Below, one piece after another: positions 51,065-57,607 of a stretch of 64,000 bases of DNA; the stretch's first letter is position 1, and the number at the start of each line of letters is the position of its first letter. This DNA is from Nesterenkonia alba DSM 19423 (GTDB lineage Bacteria > Actinomycetota > Actinomycetes > Actinomycetales > Micrococcaceae). Location: assembly GCF_000421745.1 (NCBI RefSeq), contig NZ_ATXP01000009.1:1-64000 (forward strand), written 5' to 3'. Under the pieces are notes generated by a model. It was not told the DNA's origin, did no database searches, and saw nothing but the letters and a program-made list of their open reading frames with translations. The position numbers were made by a program, and so were the translations under genes.

Positions 51065-51138
51065 CGGGACATAGCTCAGCTTGGTAGAGCGCCCGCTTTG
51101 GGAGCGGGAGGTCGCAGGTTCAAATCCTGTTGTCCCGA
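51065..51138 (+). tRNA. tRNA-Pro (TGG anticodon)
   Basis: The 74 nt cloverleaf has acceptor CGGGACA pairing TGTCCCG, D-arm with AGCTCAGCTTGGTAGAGC, anticodon stem CCCGC/GCGGG around loop TTTGGGA (anticodon TGG), and T-arm GCAGG-TTCAAAT-CCTGT. CCA is not fully encoded. It is 30 bp from the end of the TrkA-N/RyR gene. Confidence 0.95.
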
Positions 51139-51167
51139 CCGTGTGTTGTCCCGTCCGTTGTGACGTG

Positions 51168-53282
51168 TCAGGACAGCGTTGCCGGGGTGATCTCCAGGCC
51201 GATCTCGGCCAACAGTACGGGGAACCGGCGGACGGGTTCGCGATCGTATTCCTTTTGCCCGTCGGTGAGCTCATCCCACTCGCGCTGATGTTTGTGGTCA
51301 GTGCGTCCGTTGCGCAGCTCAAAGTGGAACCACCGGCGGTGTTCTAACTCCGCCAATTGCTCCACCTGCTCATCGGTGAACTCGGCGATGGCCGGATGGT
51401 CACTCACCCGCCAGGAGAGTCCCGCAATAGCCAGCTTCACCGGAATATTCGCCATCTGCGCAATATTCGACCGCTGCGCGTAACTGTCCAGTTCTTCCCA
51501 CGCCCGCTCCGCGTTGGCCGACTCTGTGGCGTTCGCGGTCTTCTGCGCGGTCTGTACGTACTGGGCATGAGCCTGCTGAGCCAGGTGTTTCAGGTTCTGG
51601 GTGAAGCGACGCTGCTCAGCACTACGAGCACTCACCGGCGACCATCCGCAGCGCGAGACCAGCACCGGCAGCCGCGAAGCCAACTCCACCAGCCGGTGGA
51701 ACTGCTCCTGCTCATCACCGGCACGGGTGAGGTCGTACCCGTCTACCTGATCCAGGGTCTGCCGTAGTGCACCGGCCACCGCACGCAGCTGATCCGGGGC
51801 GAGGATGGTGACGGCGTCGTCGTCGTTGTCGTCATAGGCCAAGCGCACCCCGGCGGCACCGAGGATCTCCTTGATCTGCTCAGCCACCGCCTGCACTGCT
51901 GCCACTTCATCCGGCCGGGCACCGGGTTCACGCAGTGACTCGAACAGCCCCGGCATATCCGCCGGCCAGCGGGCCTGGTCCGCGGAGATCTCCTTGGCCA
52001 GCAGATCATGGGGGTGCAGCAAGATGGTGTCGGCGCTGGAGAGGATCTCCCGCGGGGAAACCAAGGTCAACTGGTCGGTCTCGGCACCGGGGATCTCCCA
52101 GGTCTCACGGTCACGCACGACGGCGACCACAGTGGCTTCTGGAAGTTTCTTCGCCAGTTTCTTAGCGATCGGGCTGGAATGCACGCTCGAACGGTATGCC
52201 ACATAGATGGTGGGCGAGGCCGTGGCATAGCGCTCTTTGTGGTCCCGCACCCAGGAGTCCACAATCCCGCGGACAGTCTCCGCGCAGACTTCCACATAGG
52301 GGTTCATCCGCCGCCAGGTGACCTGGACTTTGTCCTCCACCCCGATGATGGCCGGTTCGATCCACTCCTCATCCCGGGAGGCGACCTGCACGTGGCGCTG
52401 CTCAGCGGGTTGTTGCCAACCCACGGCAATGCGCCGCAGAATCGCCCCGGCCACCGGAGAATCCCCCACGACGATCGGCGGCGGGGAGACGGCGTCCTCG
52501 GCGTAGGGCGGCTGTTGACGCAGCAGCATCATGGCCACCAGGCTGGAGCGGCACAGGGCTAAGTCCCCGGTCTCGTTGCGCCACTGCTCGGCGACTTTGC
52601 GGTCGTTGAAGAGCACGAACATGGGGGTCTTCTCATCAGCGAAGTGCCGGGCCTTCTGAGCCAGCTCGGTGGTGTATTCGTCGTCAAGGTCCATCACCAC
52701 GATCCGCTCGGCTCCGGCGAGGATCTTCTGCAGGTAGGTATCCGGCACTGCGCTGAGGTGAGCGATCTTCGCCGATGCCAGTTCCAGCCGCTCGTGCTCG
52801 CTGAGCTGACCGATAACCACCACGCGGCGCAGCCACTTTCCGCCACGCCGCCCCTTCTGACCGGTGCGCACCTTGAGGTTCAGTGCCGCAGGCACCACTT
52901 CCTCACTGTGCCCCAGGATGACGATGTGGTCTTGGAAGCGAATAGCCTTCGACATCACCCGGCGGGCAGAGACCATCCGGTAGGCCACCAGCGCCACCCC
53001 GTAGAACAGCACCGCCGCGGCGAGGAACCGCGCCAGATTCAGCTGCCAGGGGACATTCGCCTCATCCGGTACCGGTGGGGTGTTGAGGGTGAACAGCCGC
53101 AGCACGTGGTAGGCGGTCCAGTCCCAAGGCTTCTCCGGGGCTGCGATGCGGATTCCCCAGGTGCCCAGGATGGCGATGAGCACCACCAGGCAGAGCACAA
53201 TGAGACCGCGGTGACTGCGGTACCAGTCTTTGCTCCGCTGCCAGAGGGAAGGCTGAGGTGCGCTCAGCTCAGGTGCGCTCAT
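51168..53282 (-). CDS. Membrane protein with tandem TrkA-N-like domains and a C-terminal RyR domain
   Basis: A 704-residue protein. Two transmembrane helices (about 26-48 and 83-101) flank a short loop without a canonical K+ selectivity filter, as in two-helix channel-like proteins. A TrkA-N-like Rossmann domain follows (DHIVILGHSEEVV at 118-130, and RIVVMDLDDEYTTELAQKAR near 193), then a second (PPIVVGDSPVAGA at 268-280), and a C-terminal ryanodine-receptor domain (about 636-696: LAELEHRRWFHFELRNGR, ELTDGQKEYDREPV, FPVLLAEIGL). RyR domains in bacteria are thought to bind ligands in nucleotide-signalling systems. It is the last gene of a three-gene minus-strand operon headed by a TIR-LRR gene, 34 bp after the permease gene. 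Transported ion and ligand are unknown. Confidence 0.8.
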   Translation of the reverse strand: MSAPELSAPQPSLWQRSKDWYRSHRGLIVLCLVVLIAILGTWGIRIAAPEKPWDWTAYHVLRLFTLNTPPVPDEANVPWQLNLARFLAAAVLFYGVALVAYRMVSARRVMSKAIRFQDHIVILGHSEEVVPAALNLKVRTGQKGRRGGKWLRRVVVIGQLSEHERLELASAKIAHLSAVPDTYLQKILAGAERIVVMDLDDEYTTELAQKARHFADEKTPMFVLFNDRKVAEQWRNETGDLALCRSSLVAMMLLRQQPPYAEDAVSPPPIVVGDSPVAGAILRRIAVGWQQPAEQRHVQVASRDEEWIEPAIIGVEDKVQVTWRRMNPYVEVCAETVRGIVDSWVRDHKERYATASPTIYVAYRSSVHSSPIAKKLAKKLPEATVVAVVRDRETWEIPGAETDQLTLVSPREILSSADTILLHPHDLLAKEISADQARWPADMPGLFESLREPGARPDEVAAVQAVAEQIKEILGAAGVRLAYDDNDDDAVTILAPDQLRAVAGALRQTLDQVDGYDLTRAGDEQEQFHRLVELASRLPVLVSRCGWSPVSARSAEQRRFTQNLKHLAQQAHAQYVQTAQKTANATESANAERAWEELDSYAQRSNIAQMANIPVKLAIAGLSWRVSDHPAIAEFTDEQVEQLAELEHRRWFHFELRNGRTDHKHQREWDELTDGQKEYDREPVRRFPVLLAEIGLEITPATLS

Positions 53283-53316
53283 GGGATTAAACCTACTTCA
53301 CGTCGTCGGGCCCGGA

Positions 53317-54459
53317 TCATGACCACACCACCCACATCAGTGCCGTCAGCAGGATGAGCAGCCCCAGGTTGACCGCCAGGAACAGCACCAGGAACCGCCC
53401 CATCCCGTGCGAGGAGTGCACCTGGAACTGCCGCAAGGCGATGAGGTTGGCCAGGGATGCGATGAGAGTCCCGACGCCGCCCACGTTGACTCCCACCAGC
53501 AGCTCTCGCCAGTTCTCGGTGAACCCGCTGAGCAGAATCGCACTGGGGACATTGGAGATCACCTGGCTGGCGAGGACTGCGGCGATGAGCGTGTTGCCTT
53601 CCACCATGGAGGTCACCGTGGTGGAGATCGCATCGATGCGGGCGATATTCCCGGTGATGATGAAGAAGCTGACAAAAGTGATGAGCAGCCCGTAGTCGAT
53701 GCCTGCGGCGATCGCTACGTCAGAGAGGATCAGCAGGGCGACCACGGCCAGGCCCACCCACACCGGTAAGACCCGTACGGCCACCAGTACCGCCAGGGCG
53801 AAGCCCAGCCCGTAGAGCAGGGTGCGGGTTCTGTCCCCAGTGGTGGCCGGTGGCAGCGGGACCACCCGGCTGCTGCGTACCGACAGAGCCATCACGGTCA
53901 GCACCACCAGCGCCACACTGAAGGGCAGGGCCATGGTGGAGACAAACTCCCCGAAGCTCATCTCATAGGTCTGGTAGATGAAGATGTTCTGCGGGTTGCC
54001 GAAGGGCATAATCATTCCGCCGAGGTTGGCTGCAGCGGCCTGAAGAGTGAAGACGTAGGCGAGGTAGCGTTCATCGCCGGTGATCTTCAGCGCCCGGGCG
54101 GCGATGGGCAGGAACGTCAACAGGGCCATGTCATTGGAGATGGCCATAGATCCGATCCCGGTCAGCAGGACCAGCCCGGTGATGAGACTCCGGCGGCTGC
54201 GCAGCCGGGTCACCAGGTGTTCGGCGGCGATGGTGAACACGTGCACCCGCTCCAGGGCGGCAATGGCGGTGAGCATGCAGGTCAGCGCCACGATGGTCCG
54301 GTAGTCGATGTAGTCCAGGTATTCCCCGTCCGGGGGGACGGCGAAGCAGCTGGCCACAGCCAGTAGCACTGCAATGCCCGCGAAGGTGTGGGAGACGATC
54401 CAGCCGCGGAGGGTCTGCAGGAGGGATGAGCTCGTCACGGCACCGGCCTGCCGACTCAC
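53317..54459 (-). CDS. SLC13/ArsB-type ion or anion permease
   Basis: A 380-residue membrane protein with ten or more hydrophobic helices. The inverted-repeat motifs of the ion-transporter superfamily are present: SNDMALLTFLP and GNPQNIFIY in the first half, and ITGNIAR, SNVPSAILLSGF and VGTLIASLANLIA in the second. Relatives carry dicarboxylates, arsenite or sodium; the substrate here cannot be read from sequence, and no arsenic genes are near. GTG 54459 overlaps the TIR-LRR stop as GTGA (54456-54459), so it is translationally coupled to that gene. Confidence 0.8.
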   Translation of the reverse strand: MSRQAGAVTSSSLLQTLRGWIVSHTFAGIAVLLAVASCFAVPPDGEYLDYIDYRTIVALTCMLTAIAALERVHVFTIAAEHLVTRLRSRRSLITGLVLLTGIGSMAISNDMALLTFLPIAARALKITGDERYLAYVFTLQAAAANLGGMIMPFGNPQNIFIYQTYEMSFGEFVSTMALPFSVALVVLTVMALSVRSSRVVPLPPATTGDRTRTLLYGLGFALAVLVAVRVLPVWVGLAVVALLILSDVAIAAGIDYGLLITFVSFFIITGNIARIDAISTTVTSMVEGNTLIAAVLASQVISNVPSAILLSGFTENWRELLVGVNVGGVGTLIASLANLIALRQFQVHSSHGMGRFLVLFLAVNLGLLILLTALMWVVWS

Positions 54460-56036
54460 AGGGCGGTGTGCGGGATGTCGTTCTCCGCGCAGTATCCCCA
54501 GGCGTAGGAGTTCGGCGGGCAGGCGATCTCCACATCCGGGCAGCCGTGGAAGGCACCCCAGCCGATGTGCAGCAGCCTCTCGTGGAGCACCACCCGGCGC
54601 AGCCCGGTGCAGTTACGGAAGGCGATGTCATCGATGTAGGTCACCGACGGCGGCACCACGAGTTCGGTCAGCCCGGTACAGCTGTAGAAGGCTCCCTCGC
54701 CGATGTCTTCAACGGAGTCGGGCAGTTCGATGCTGGTCAGCGCCCGGGCGTCAGCGAAGGCCCAGGAGGAAATGGAGACCACGCTGTCGGGAACGACGAA
54801 CCAGTCGACGTCGCGCGCTGGTGGGTAGGCCACGATGGTGGACTTGGGCTTGTTGTAGAGGATCCCGCCTTGGTCCTTGTAGTGGCGGTTGCCTTCCTCC
54901 ACCCGGATCTCTTCCAGACTGCTGGCCGAACGGAACGCATCGGAGCTGATATTGCTCACCCCGGTGGGAATATCGATGCTCTTCAGGCTTGAGCACCCTT
55001 TGAAGGCGAACCGGCCGATCTTGGAGAGCCGGTCGGGGATGTGGACCCGCTGCAGGTTCGTGCAGTCGGCGAAGGCTCCAGAGTCGATTTTGAAGGTCTC
55101 CTCCGGTAGCACGACTTCCCGTAGCCCGGTGCAGTCGGCGAAGGCGCCCTCCCCTACGGTTTTCAGTTTGGAGGGGAAGGGAAAGGATTCCAGCGAGGAG
55201 CAGGAGTTGTACGAGCCTTCGGCGATTTCTTCGCGTTCGTCGGGCACGATGACGTTCTTCAGGGAGACGCAGTTTTCGAACACGCGTCCGCCGAGGTAGG
55301 CCTCGGGGTTGTGCATGGCGAGGTTTTCCATCCCGGTGCAGTCACGGAAGGCGCTGTGTCCGATGCGCTCCAAATTGGGTCCGAGTTCGATCCCGGTGAG
55401 GGCGGTACAGCCGCGGAAGGCTTCCCGGCCCATCTCCACCAGGGAGTCCGGCAGGCTGACGGTCTGTAGTTGGAGGCGTTCTTTGAAGGCGCCGTCGGCA
55501 ATCTTGGTGACACCTTCGGGGATGTCGACGTGACGGCCGTTGTCGATGGCACTGAGTACGACGCCGTCTTCGATGACCAGCCGTTCCATGGTCTCCGGGG
55601 GCAGGCTTTCAACGAGTTTTTCCACGTAGCGGGGTTCAGAGGTGTACCCCTTGACGTGTTGGAGATTCTCCAGGATCAATTGCAGTGCCGGTGGGATCTG
55701 CACATCGGGGTAGAGCATCACCGGGTAGATCCGCTTGCCCAGCTGGTGGGCGGTGATGAGCTCCATGCCGCAGAACTTGGAGTTCATGGACTCGTTGGAG
55801 ATGAACATGACGAAGGCACTGCAGCGGCTGATCTGCAGGCGGAGTTCGTCGCGGAAGTCGCTGCCGATTTCCATGGTGTCGTCGTACCAGAACCGGAATC
55901 GGTGGTCGGCGAGCACGGCCATCAGGTCGTGGACTTCGGTGGTGTTACGGTGCGAGTAGCTGATGAAGCAGAACGGGTCCTCACCGCTGTACGCCTTAAA
56001 CCGCGGAACCGCTTCTACGACGTCTGTTTCCGCCAA
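54456..56036 (-). CDS. TIR domain fused to BspA-type leucine-rich repeats
   Basis: A 526-residue protein, no signal peptide. Residues about 18-145 are a TIR domain: PFCFISYSHRN, RFRFWYDDTMEIGSDFRDEL, SAFVMFIS and SKFCGMELITA with Glu 92 at the NADase catalytic position. Residues about 165-510 hold a dozen or more ~23-residue LRR_5/BspA repeats of the pattern GAFxxCTxLxxVxLPxxxxxI. TIR domains cleave NAD, some yielding cyclic ADP-ribose isomers; LRRs may sense a partner. Start is TTG 56036 behind GAGGGGGTTGGGG; no in-frame ATG or GTG lies upstream. It heads the operon and is divergent from tig. Confidence 0.88.
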   Translation of the reverse strand: MAETDVVEAVPRFKAYSGEDPFCFISYSHRNTTEVHDLMAVLADHRFRFWYDDTMEIGSDFRDELRLQISRCSAFVMFISNESMNSKFCGMELITAHQLGKRIYPVMLYPDVQIPPALQLILENLQHVKGYTSEPRYVEKLVESLPPETMERLVIEDGVVLSAIDNGRHVDIPEGVTKIADGAFKERLQLQTVSLPDSLVEMGREAFRGCTALTGIELGPNLERIGHSAFRDCTGMENLAMHNPEAYLGGRVFENCVSLKNVIVPDEREEIAEGSYNSCSSLESFPFPSKLKTVGEGAFADCTGLREVVLPEETFKIDSGAFADCTNLQRVHIPDRLSKIGRFAFKGCSSLKSIDIPTGVSNISSDAFRSASSLEEIRVEEGNRHYKDQGGILYNKPKSTIVAYPPARDVDWFVVPDSVVSISSWAFADARALTSIELPDSVEDIGEGAFYSCTGLTELVVPPSVTYIDDIAFRNCTGLRRVVLHERLLHIGWGAFHGCPDVEIACPPNSYAWGYCAENDIPHTAL

Positions 56037-56152
56037 TCCCCCAACCCCCTCATGTGCATCGGCCGCGTTGACACCTGCCCCATGCTAGCCGACGACGACG
56101 TCGCCACAGGGTGGATGACGCAGGCAGAATGGCGGTCATGGCCGCGAGACGT

Positions 56153-56158
56153 TAGGCT
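56153..56158 (+). promoter_or_regulatory. Candidate -10 of tig
   Basis: TAGGCT lies 48 bp before the tig GTG. The -35 region (around 56130, TGGCGG) is weak. Confidence 0.35.
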
Positions 56159-56206
56159 AGTGCGGCCTACGACCAGTCCCCTCAACATCCTTACAGGAGC
56201 CCTTAC

Positions 56207-57607
56207 GTGGTCAAGAGTACCGTCGAAGAACTGAATCCGACTCGAGTCAAACTCACCGTCGAGGTGTCCAGCGAGGAGCTCGAGCCCAAGATCAAGGCAG
56301 CTTATAAGAGCATTGCCGGTCAGGTTCAGATCCCTGGGTTCCGCAAGGGCAAGGTGCCTGCGGCCATCATCGATCAGCGCATCGGCCGGGAGTATGTCAT
56401 CCAGCAGGCCATTAATGATGGGCTGCAGGAGTTCTACCAGGCTGGTCTGGCCGACGCGGAGATCAGCCCGCTCTCCCGCCCCGAGGTGGAGGTCGAGGAG
56501 ATCCCTGACCCGAAGACCAATGAGGGTGTGCTGAAGTTCTCCGGTGAGCTGGACATCAAGCCGGAGATCGACCTGCCTGACTACAAGGGTCTTGAGGTTC
56601 AGGTCGAAGCCCGCGAGGTCGACGACGAGGCGGTCCAGAAGGAGCTCGACGAGCTGCGCAGCCGTTTCGGCACTTTGAAGGAGATTGACCGCCCAGCTGG
56701 TGACGGTGACTTTGTCTCCATCGACATGGTTGCCAAGATCGACGGCGAGGAAGTCGACTCCGCCACGGGCCTGTCCTACCAGGTGGGGGCCGGCAACATG
56801 CTCGAGGGCCTCGATGAGGCACTTGACGGCCTGACCCCGGGTGAGGACGCCACCTTCGAGACCACCCTGGCCGGCGGGGAGCACTCCGGTGAGCAGGCGC
56901 AGGTCACGGTGACCCTCACCGCGGTCAAGGAGCGGGAACTGCCCGAGGCTGACGACGAGTTCGCTCAGATGGCCTCCGAGTTCGACACCATTGAGGAGCT
57001 CCGCGAGGACCTGAAGAAGAAGGCCGCTGAGAAGCTCGTGGAGCAGCAGGGGGCCGAGGCTCAGGACAAGGTGTTGGAGAAGCTGGTGAACCTGGTGGAG
57101 GTTCCGGTGCCGGCTGGTGTGGTGGAGGAGCAGGTGCAGCAGCACTTCAGCTCCCAGGGCCACTCCGAGGGTGACGATCATGACACCGAGGAGCACCGCG
57201 AGGAGATCCGCAAGCGCACCGAAGAGGCCTTCCGTAATGAACTGGTGCTGGACATCGTCGCCGAGCGCGAGGAGATCCAGGTTGAGCAGAACGAGGTCAT
57301 TGAGTACATCGTGGCCACCGCGGGCCAGTACGGCATGCAGCCACAGCAGTTCGCGCAGATGCTTGAGCAGGCTGGCCAGATCCCGATGATTCTGGGTGAG
57401 GTGCGGCGCCGTAAGGCCCTGGCTAAGGTGCTGGAGCACGCTGCGGTGGTGGACACTGAAGGTAACGACGTCGACCTCAGTGAGTTCGTCAACCCACCGA
57501 GCGAGGACGACGACGTCGCCGACTCAGCCGAGACCACCGAGGCCGACGCTGATGCTGAGGGCACGGAGGATTCCGAGGCCCAACAGGACCCGGAGGAGAA
57601 GGAGTAA
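56207..57607 (+). CDS. tig: Trigger factor, ribosome-associated chaperone and prolyl isomerase
   Basis: A 466-residue protein. N-terminal ribosome-binding domain with [10 protein letters not shown] (the GFRxGKxP signature, about 44-53), central FKBP-type PPIase domain (about 160-245: [25 protein letters not shown]) and helical C-terminal chaperone arms, ending in a long Asp/Glu tail common in actinobacteria. GTG 56207 follows CAGGAGCC. In related genomes tig usually adjoins clpP1; here the TIR/permease/RyR operon and tRNA-Pro lie between. Confidence 0.97.

What the first reader, a model, noticed from the sequence alone, without database searches (positions are those of the whole stretch)
51168..56036. 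Three-gene operon linking a TIR-LRR enzyme, an SLC13-type permease and a TrkA-N/RyR membrane protein
Seen: a minus-strand run of TIR-LRR (Glu 92 kept), a permease overlapping it by GTGA, and 34 bp later a two-helix TrkA-N protein ending in a ryanodine-receptor domain. Known: TIR domains can turn NAD into cyclic ADP-ribose isomers, animal ryanodine receptors respond to cyclic ADP-ribose, and bacterial RyR domains have been proposed as nucleotide-ligand sensors in conflict systems (from memory). Inference: the LRRs sense a cue, TIR makes a nucleotide, and the RyR/TrkA-N protein with the permease changes ion flux, as a defence or stress response. I know of no described system with this gene set.
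Basis: partly seen in the sequence, partly recalled or inferred. Interest (0 to 1): 0.9.

Follow-up and report, generated by a model that had tools for sequence, protein, structure and literature searches.

The report
TIR enzyme beside ryanodine-domain channel-like protein
An actinobacterium has an operon in which an NAD-cutting immune-type enzyme sits beside a channel-like membrane protein that ends in the nucleotide-binding module of animal ryanodine receptors, a pairing that also turns up in distant bacteria and archaea and may be a nucleotide-gated membrane defence.

Summary
The three genes are real and lie where stated: TIR plus BspA-type LRR (Glu92 kept), a CitMHS/SLC13-type permease, and a two-helix membrane protein. 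The third protein's C-terminus is a genuine ryanodine-receptor R12 domain. Its own Pfam RyR score is sub-threshold (11.4 against 27.4 bits), but homologues pass, and the modelled fold matches human RyR3 R12 (Z 12.8). Its N-terminus resembles 2TM-RCK potassium channels (MthK, GsuK) without a K+ filter. The four ligand residues reported for phage RyDEP, an R12 enzyme that cleaves 2'/3'cADPR, are present.

The exact trio was found nowhere else. The permease was never found beside another channel-R12 gene, and the five closest orthologues (36-38%) have no TIR or permease neighbour; four of those five genomes have no TIR_2. Yet a TIR gene lies within 2 kb in 15 of 52 related loci, in five phyla including archaea, at 11.6 times the density of more distant flanks.

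Best reading: a Thoeris-like pair in which LRR-TIR makes an ADP-ribose-type signal that R12 reads to gate a channel-like effector; the permease is accessory. Ligand, channel activity and defence are inferred. A 2025 preprint surveying TIR systems was not readable, so priority is uncertain.

The parts
54456..56036 (-). TIR-LRR gene, 526 aa, TTG start; proposed sensor and NAD-consuming, signal-making enzyme
55644..55967 (-). TIR_2 domain, residues 24-131, with Glu92 at 55761-55763
   Evidence: Pfam 59.2 bits; weak sequence matches to SARM1 (E 0.001) and CRISPR-associated TIR Cat1 (E 0.0021); Glu column
54537..55535 (-). BspA-type LRR_5 array (about residues 168-500)
   Evidence: Pfam 246.5 bits; LRR structures of the PDB, best E 4.7e-60
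54456..54459 (-). GTGA overlap of TIR-LRR stop and permease start, suggesting translational coupling
   Evidence: sequence
53317..54459 (-). CitMHS/SLC13-type permease, 380 aa; role in the system uncertain
   Evidence: Pfam 97.7 bits; plasmid homologues annotated SLC13 family permease
51168..53282 (-). 2TM-RCK(TrkA_N-like)-RyR/R12 protein, 704 aa; proposed receptor and effector
52938..53210 (-). Pore-like module: TM1 (res 25-47), short helix 53-64, TM2 (79-115); no TxGYG-type filter
   Evidence: model; hydropathy; MthK and GsuK rows
52497..52937 (-). RCK/TrkA_N-like Rossmann domain, about residues 116-262
   Evidence: HMM built on homologues detects this region in relatives
51177..51605 (-). 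RyR Repeat12 domain, about residues 560-702; H648 (51339-51341), W651 (51330-51332), H663 (51294-51296), D680 (51243-51245) are equivalent to RyDEP H75, W78, H100, D117
   Evidence: PMC13232231
51065..51140 (+). tRNA-Pro(TGG) directly beside the operon end; site context

Best explanation
The operon encodes a Thoeris-like, two-step nucleotide signalling defence in which the effector is an R12-gated, channel-like membrane protein. The BspA-type LRRs of the first protein sense an intracellular cue such as a phage product (inferred). Its TIR domain then converts NAD to an ADP-ribose derivative (inferred from family and Glu92). The R12 domain of the third protein binds that nucleotide through H648, W651, H663 and D680 (residues shown, binding inferred). 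Binding is relayed through the RCK ring to the two-helix pore-like module, changing ion flux and stopping or killing the cell (inferred). The permease is translationally coupled but not a conserved partner; it is most likely an accessory transporter adjusting the flux or a locally recruited cargo gene. Shown here: gene structure, domain identities, R12 ligand-residue conservation, R12 as the most conserved part against the nearest orthologues, and the recurrent TIR/R12-channel association. Not shown: any activity.
For: TIR_2 with Glu92. RyR R12 fold, Z 13.0 to a Bacteroides/human R12 chimera and 12.8 to human RyR3 R12 with AMP-PCP. RCK and MthK/GsuK channel matches. RyDEP ligand residues: 4 of 4 in the window; in the 47-sequence alignment (window included) H648 46, W651 43, H663 27, D680 42; 5 of 5 nearest orthologues have all four. 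Against those orthologues the R12 domain is 48-51% identical and the membrane part 25-27%. TIR gene within 2 kb of the channel-R12 gene in 15 of 52 loci that were found by the R12 protein alone; 12 of the 15 on the same strand, 9 of them within 500 bp. TIR density 16 per 184,976 bases at 0-2 kb against 4 per 537,885 at 2-10 kb, ratio 11.6, binomial p 5e-7. In order-level relatives 3 of 10 genomes with a RyR match have a TIR_2 beside it (G550, G1073, G1142). Neighbour TIRs often carry sensor-like repeats (WD40, TPR, NB-ARC, Roc, PD40), as the LRRs do here. Phage R12 proteins bind or cleave 2'/3'cADPR and counter Thoeris (PMC13232231, parts 1-2 of the text read).
Against: The five closest full-length orthologues (36-38%) have no TIR and no permease nearby, and four of those five genomes have no TIR_2 at all, so this subfamily can work without a TIR. 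37 of 52 loci have no TIR within 2 kb. The trio is a single case. The window R12 has a loop 10 residues shorter between W651 and H663 than phage R12 proteins and most homologues, which may alter the ligand. Two-helix pore has no K+ filter, and the whole-chain match to MthK is loose (rmsd 9-11 A; TM-scores under 0.4). The tree label needs only 8 changes, related loci are counted separately, and MAG titles may be wrong. No defence-island genes were sought or seen in the window beyond this operon; the site is a housekeeping region. No activity was measured.
Confidence: 0.4

Rival explanations
1. The third protein is an ion-homeostasis channel or transporter regulator gated by ordinary adenine nucleotides (ATP, ADP, NAD), and the TIR-LRR is an unrelated or loosely associated neighbour acquired at the same site. 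The R12 domain works as in animal RyR, which binds AMP-PCP or ATP.
For: Five standalone orthologues, four in genomes without TIR_2. R12 structures bound to AMP-PCP, ADP and ATP head the fold list. GsuK and RCK domains also bind nucleotides (titles). 37 of 52 loci lack a close TIR.
Against: TIR clustering around channel-R12 genes is 11.6 times the local background and spans five phyla. In the window the genes are in one compact operon with an overlapping start.
Confidence: 0.27
2. The R12 domain is an enzyme or sponge that removes the TIR product (RyDEP-like, with the H/D dyad kept), so the third protein is the off-switch or immunity component of a TIR toxin rather than its effector.
For: Both RyDEP catalytic residues (H75, D117) have equivalents H648 and D680; RyDEP cleaves 2'/3'cADPR (PMC13232231).
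Against: The same paper reports that tested homologues of high conservation bind without cleaving, so the dyad is not diagnostic. A dedicated degrader would not need a conserved 2TM-RCK part.
Confidence: 0.13
3. The TIR-LRR is a self-contained NADase suicide effector; the two membrane proteins are passengers or an independent transport function.
For: TIR-repeat proteins can act alone as NADases (recalled); permease and channel genes both occur without TIR elsewhere.
Against: Recurrent TIR/R12-channel pairing in other genomes.
Confidence: 0.12

Closest known systems
Thoeris (TIR ThsB plus nucleotide-reading ThsA effector)
   Same: A TIR gene beside a gene for a protein with a nucleotide-binding domain; TIR matches ThsB models weakly (PADLOC best ThsB E 2.5e-6).
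   Different: Receptor is an R12 domain on a 2TM-RCK protein, not SLOG-SIR2 or Macro-TM; PADLOC has no model matching the receptor or the permease at E up to 1. No phage data.
RyDEP and other phage R12/RyR proteins (PMC13232231)
   Same: R12 domain, same four ligand residues and identical H-W (3) and H-D (17) spacings (spacings counted by eye).
   Different: Cellular, fused to 2TM-RCK; loop between W and H is 12 instead of 22 residues; encoded with the TIR rather than against it.
2TM-RCK channels MthK and GsuK
   Same: TM1, short helix, TM2, then RCK domain; Foldseek best hits MthK 6oly (E 1.0e-5) and GsuK 4gx0 (1.4e-5).
   Different: No TxGYG-type filter; extra C-terminal R12; low TM-scores for the whole chain.
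Animal ryanodine receptor Repeat12 domain
   Same: Fold, Z 12.8 to human RyR3 R12.
   Different: 15-18% sequence identity; different channel body.
Swarozyc (DUF4062, TIR-like NADases; PMC13174449, search listing only)
   Same: NAD-consuming TIR-like defence with associated genes.
   Different: Different family; the window TIR is TIR_2 and no DUF4062 was called.

Membership tests
TIR domain family (TIR_2) | Score over the curated cut-off | tested here: met
   59.2 bits, cut-off 28
TIR domain family (TIR_2) | Catalytic glutamate | tested here: met
   Glu92 in the conserved column; activity not measured
RyR / Repeat12 family PF02026 | Score over the curated cut-off for this protein | tested here: not met
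   11.4 bits, cut-off 27.4; its homologues pass in 9 of 10
RyR / Repeat12 family PF02026 | R12 fold | tested here: met
   Z 13.0 (6uhi), 12.8 (9l91) over 142-143 residues; the tool warns that Z under about 13 is common for helical folds, so read together with sequence evidence
RyR / Repeat12 family PF02026 | Ligand residues of RyDEP (H, W, H, D) | tested here: met
   H648, W651, H663, D680
2TM-RCK K+ channel | Two TM helices with an intervening short helix, then RCK domain | tested here: met
   Model, fold rows
2TM-RCK K+ channel | TxGYG-type selectivity filter | tested here: not met
   Residues 64-80 after the short helix hold no such motif (sequence, alignment)
Thoeris | TIR gene next to a nucleotide-reading effector gene | tested here: met
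   Operon in window; recurrent pair
Thoeris | Effector belongs to a described ThsA type | tested here: inconclusive
   No PADLOC 2023 model matches; later Thoeris types are in a preprint that is not held
Thoeris | Signal molecule made by TIR and phage protection | not testable with these tools
   needs biochemistry
CitMHS / SLC13-type permease | Score over the curated cut-off | tested here: met
   97.7 bits, cut-off 31.9

The most novel reading that the evidence does not exclude
Bacteria and archaea possess a widespread TIR signalling branch whose effector is a 2TM-RCK channel opened by an ADP-ribose-type messenger through a ryanodine-receptor R12 domain. The operon here is a divergent member with an LRR sensor and an added permease. 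The link between TIR-made cyclic ADP-ribose and R12-bearing channels, debated for animal ryanodine receptors, would then have a prokaryotic counterpart, and phage R12 proteins would be stolen receptor domains.
Probability: 0.33. Interest if true: 0.87.

Novelty: new variant of a known kind. Interest (0 to 1): 0.62.

Why it matters
If right, TIR immune signalling can act through a ligand-gated channel-like effector that uses the same domain as animal ryanodine receptors. That would give a genetically simple system in which to test whether TIR-made cyclic ADP-ribose isomers directly gate R12-bearing channels, and it would explain where phage R12 anti-Thoeris proteins come from. It would also add an effector class to Thoeris-like defences that current annotation (PADLOC 2023) does not recognise.

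Tried and rejected
The trio as a conserved system: rejected within the genomes searched. No permease relative (blastp E up to 1e-4) in ORFs of 74 RyR loci (L039-L058, L068-L121), none at E up to 1e-5 in nine order-level loci. Permease relatives in the class (two genomes at 47%, of 196 other genomes) have no RyR or TIR-LRR relative in about 19 kb around them and no TIR_2 in the genome. Permeases on four plasmid records looked at (of nine with matches) sit with other genes.

The RyR gene as a family trait: 0 of 294 other genomes of the family, 0 of 29 others of the genus. These searches score only a few candidates per genome, so misses are possible.

Residue 663 (His in 11 of 13 TIR-near rows and 15 of 33 others, Fisher p 0.02) as a TIR-specific signature: not upheld when related sequences are paired on the tree (median p 1).

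Viral contigs: no match to the window RyR protein and no confirmed permease relative. Plasmids: no match to the RyR protein; the TIR-LRR matches listed start at residue 103 or later and their listed annotations are leucine-rich-repeat proteins or absent. The RyR search of the own genome with PF02026 found nothing, but no control genome rang either.

The first alignment of 12 homologues was too diverse for a collection scan. A fourth alignment was meaningless and is not used.

Literature: nine searches were answered; among the papers listed none has a title or abstract describing a TIR gene paired with a 2TM-RCK-RyR protein. Most listed papers were seen only as listings. [quoted passage not shown] Burroughs et al. 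2015 on nucleotide-centric conflict systems, which I recall as discussing prokaryotic RyR domains, was not held.
Full report
What is there. The window's minus strand holds three compact genes: 54456-56036 (526 aa), 53317-54459 (380 aa) and 51168-53282 (704 aa), the first two overlapping by GTGA and the third following after 34 bp. They lie between tRNA-Pro (51065-51140) with the clpP-clpP-clpX cluster on one side and tig (56207-57607, plus strand) on the other. Base composition is coding-like and unremarkable. Pfam calls TIR_2 and LRR_5 on the first protein and CitMHS on the second. The class-level relatives include contigs of the same length as Frankia and Planomonospora records (10,267 and 794,797 bases), so it is an actinobacterium.

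The third protein. Alone it gets no TrkA_N call and a sub-threshold RyR call. A search of 394 class genomes gave 38 others with matches, nearly all to residues 560-702. Of ten of these homologues scanned, nine pass RyR and eight pass TrkA_N. An AlphaFold model built on 47 sequences (mean pLDDT 69, pTM 0.56; residues 292-557 mostly poor) shows TM1 at 25-47, a short helix at 53-64, TM2 at 79-115, a Rossmann domain from 119, and a confident helical domain at 555-700. Foldseek ranks MthK and GsuK channels first (E about 1e-5, low TM-scores). VIA-align ranks RyR Repeat12 crystal structures first for residues 557-702 (Z 13.0 and 12.8) and RCK domains for 115-288 (Z 12.3), while the two-helix part follows MthK only loosely (rmsd 9-11 A). 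The region after the short helix has no potassium-filter motif. So the protein is a 2TM-RCK channel-like body carrying an R12 domain; whether it conducts is unknown.

Ligand pocket. The RyDEP paper (PMC13232231; I read the abstract, results and the beginning of the methods, plus passages and references) names H75, W78, H100 and D117 as ligand residues and H75/D117 as the catalytic dyad of an enzyme that cleaves 2'/3'cADPR; tested homologues mostly bind without cleaving. I did not have the RyDEP sequence. An Arthrobacter phage R12 protein aligned here has the same spacings of 3, 22 and 17 (counted by eye). The window has H648, W651, H663 and D680 with spacings 3, 12 and 17, that is, all four residues and a loop ten residues shorter. 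In the 47-sequence alignment, window included, these columns hold H 46, W 43, H 27 (S in 15) and D 42.

Nearest relatives. An order-level search of 396 genomes gave ten others with matches; five, all of one family (f9), match over the full length at 36-38%. All four ligand residues are kept in 5 of 5. R12 is 48-51% identical to them, the RCK2-like region 37-39%, RCK1 24-30% and the membrane part 25-27%: R12 is the most constrained part. But around these five genes no TIR-LRR, TIR or permease relative was found (one contig is only 4.6 kb), and four of five genomes have no TIR_2 at all. Of the other five order-level genomes, three have a TIR_2 next to a RyR gene (G550, G1073, G1142); in G1097 and G889 it is far away or on another contig. 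My own TIR model missed the G1073 case, so its counts are lower bounds.

Recurrence of the pair. One scan of 84,980 species genomes with an alignment of the R12 protein gave 54 loci, 52 of them with a recognisable 2TM-TrkA_N-RyR ORF. TIR played no part in finding them. In 14 a TIR gene lies within 2 kb by my model at E up to 1e-4; L120, just under that threshold, is added because Pfam confirms it, giving 15 of 52. Twelve of the 15 are on the same strand and nine of those within 500 bp; archaeal gaps are 6 and 7 bp. By record title they span Actinomycetota, Chloroflexota, Pseudomonadota, Verrucomicrobiota and methanogenic archaea. Density is 16 TIR genes in 184,976 bases at 0-2 kb against 4 in 537,885 at 2-10 kb, ratio 11.6, p 5e-7 (L120 not included). 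One of the four distant ones is itself next to a second channel-R12 gene (L113). Of 20 TIR neighbours scanned, all 20 pass TIR_2 (two of these, L049 and L055, come genomes, and L070's TIR is 4 kb away); L073 was not scanned. Several carry WD40, TPR, NB-ARC, Roc or PD40 repeats, comparable to the LRRs here. The label 'TIR near' needs 8 changes on the tree. Limits: related loci are counted separately, and 37 of 52 have no close TIR, including nearly all Frankia-type ones.

The permease. It is a CitMHS/SLC13-type carrier of a kind annotated elsewhere as SLC13 family permease. It never appears with R12 genes in the loci examined. One same-genus genome (G290, of 29 others) keeps a 64-residue piece at 75% identity, alone. 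The trio is therefore a local assembly.

Site. In five of five same-genus genomes examined (of 29), the order is clpP1, tig, tRNA-Pro with tig on the same strand as clpP. In the window tRNA-Pro and tig are inverted as a block with the operon between them. The operon was thus gained at the tig/tRNA-Pro junction, with an inversion.

Interpretation. The most economical account of a recurrent TIR/R12-channel pair, given R12's demonstrated affinity for TIR products in phage proteins, is a signalling pair of the Thoeris kind with a channel-like effector. The main competing account is a nucleotide-gated channel that does not depend on TIR, which the standalone orthologues favour. I put the first at 0.4 and the second at 0.27.

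Novelty. Nine answered literature searches listed no paper whose title or abstract describes this pairing. The preprint most likely to contain it was not held, and prior discussion of prokaryotic RyR domains in conflict systems is recalled, not read. I therefore call it a new variant of a known kind.

Noticed in passing
window 51065-57607: tRNA-Pro and tig form an inverted block relative to five of five same-genus genomes examined, with the operon inside the block.
   Followed up: partly
L163:665-856 (G290:C3): A 64-residue remnant of the permease (75% identical) stands alone between unrelated genes in a same-genus genome; no TIR or RyR remains were detected.
   Followed up: partly
L068:7841-10498, L070:12746-15241, L076:3268-5757: Beside the channel-R12 gene lie other RyR proteins with RelA_SpoT domains, with LSDAT_prok over cut-off in two of the three, hinting that R12 also reads other nucleotides.
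   Followed up: no
L069:5025-8387, L092:3-2957, L111:7361-10381, L119:4677-6779: Neighbouring RyR-containing proteins with weak AAA/STAND-like ATPase matches (RyR itself sub-threshold in L069).
   Followed up: no
phages collection, e.g. L169:189-1022 (Arthrobacter phage Shiba gp66): R12-like proteins occur in 73 phage records for one query, 21 of them Arthrobacter phages; gp66 has the RyDEP residue spacings and a hydrophobic N-terminus.
   Followed up: partly
L073:3134-7294, L106:13174-17064: Two TIR neighbours seem to lack the glutamate in the aligned column, so these may bind rather than cut NAD.
   Followed up: no
alignment A3, window residue 663: The phosphate-contacting His is replaced by Ser in 15 of 47 channel-R12 proteins; some of these sit beside RelA_SpoT-RyR genes.
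   Followed up: partly
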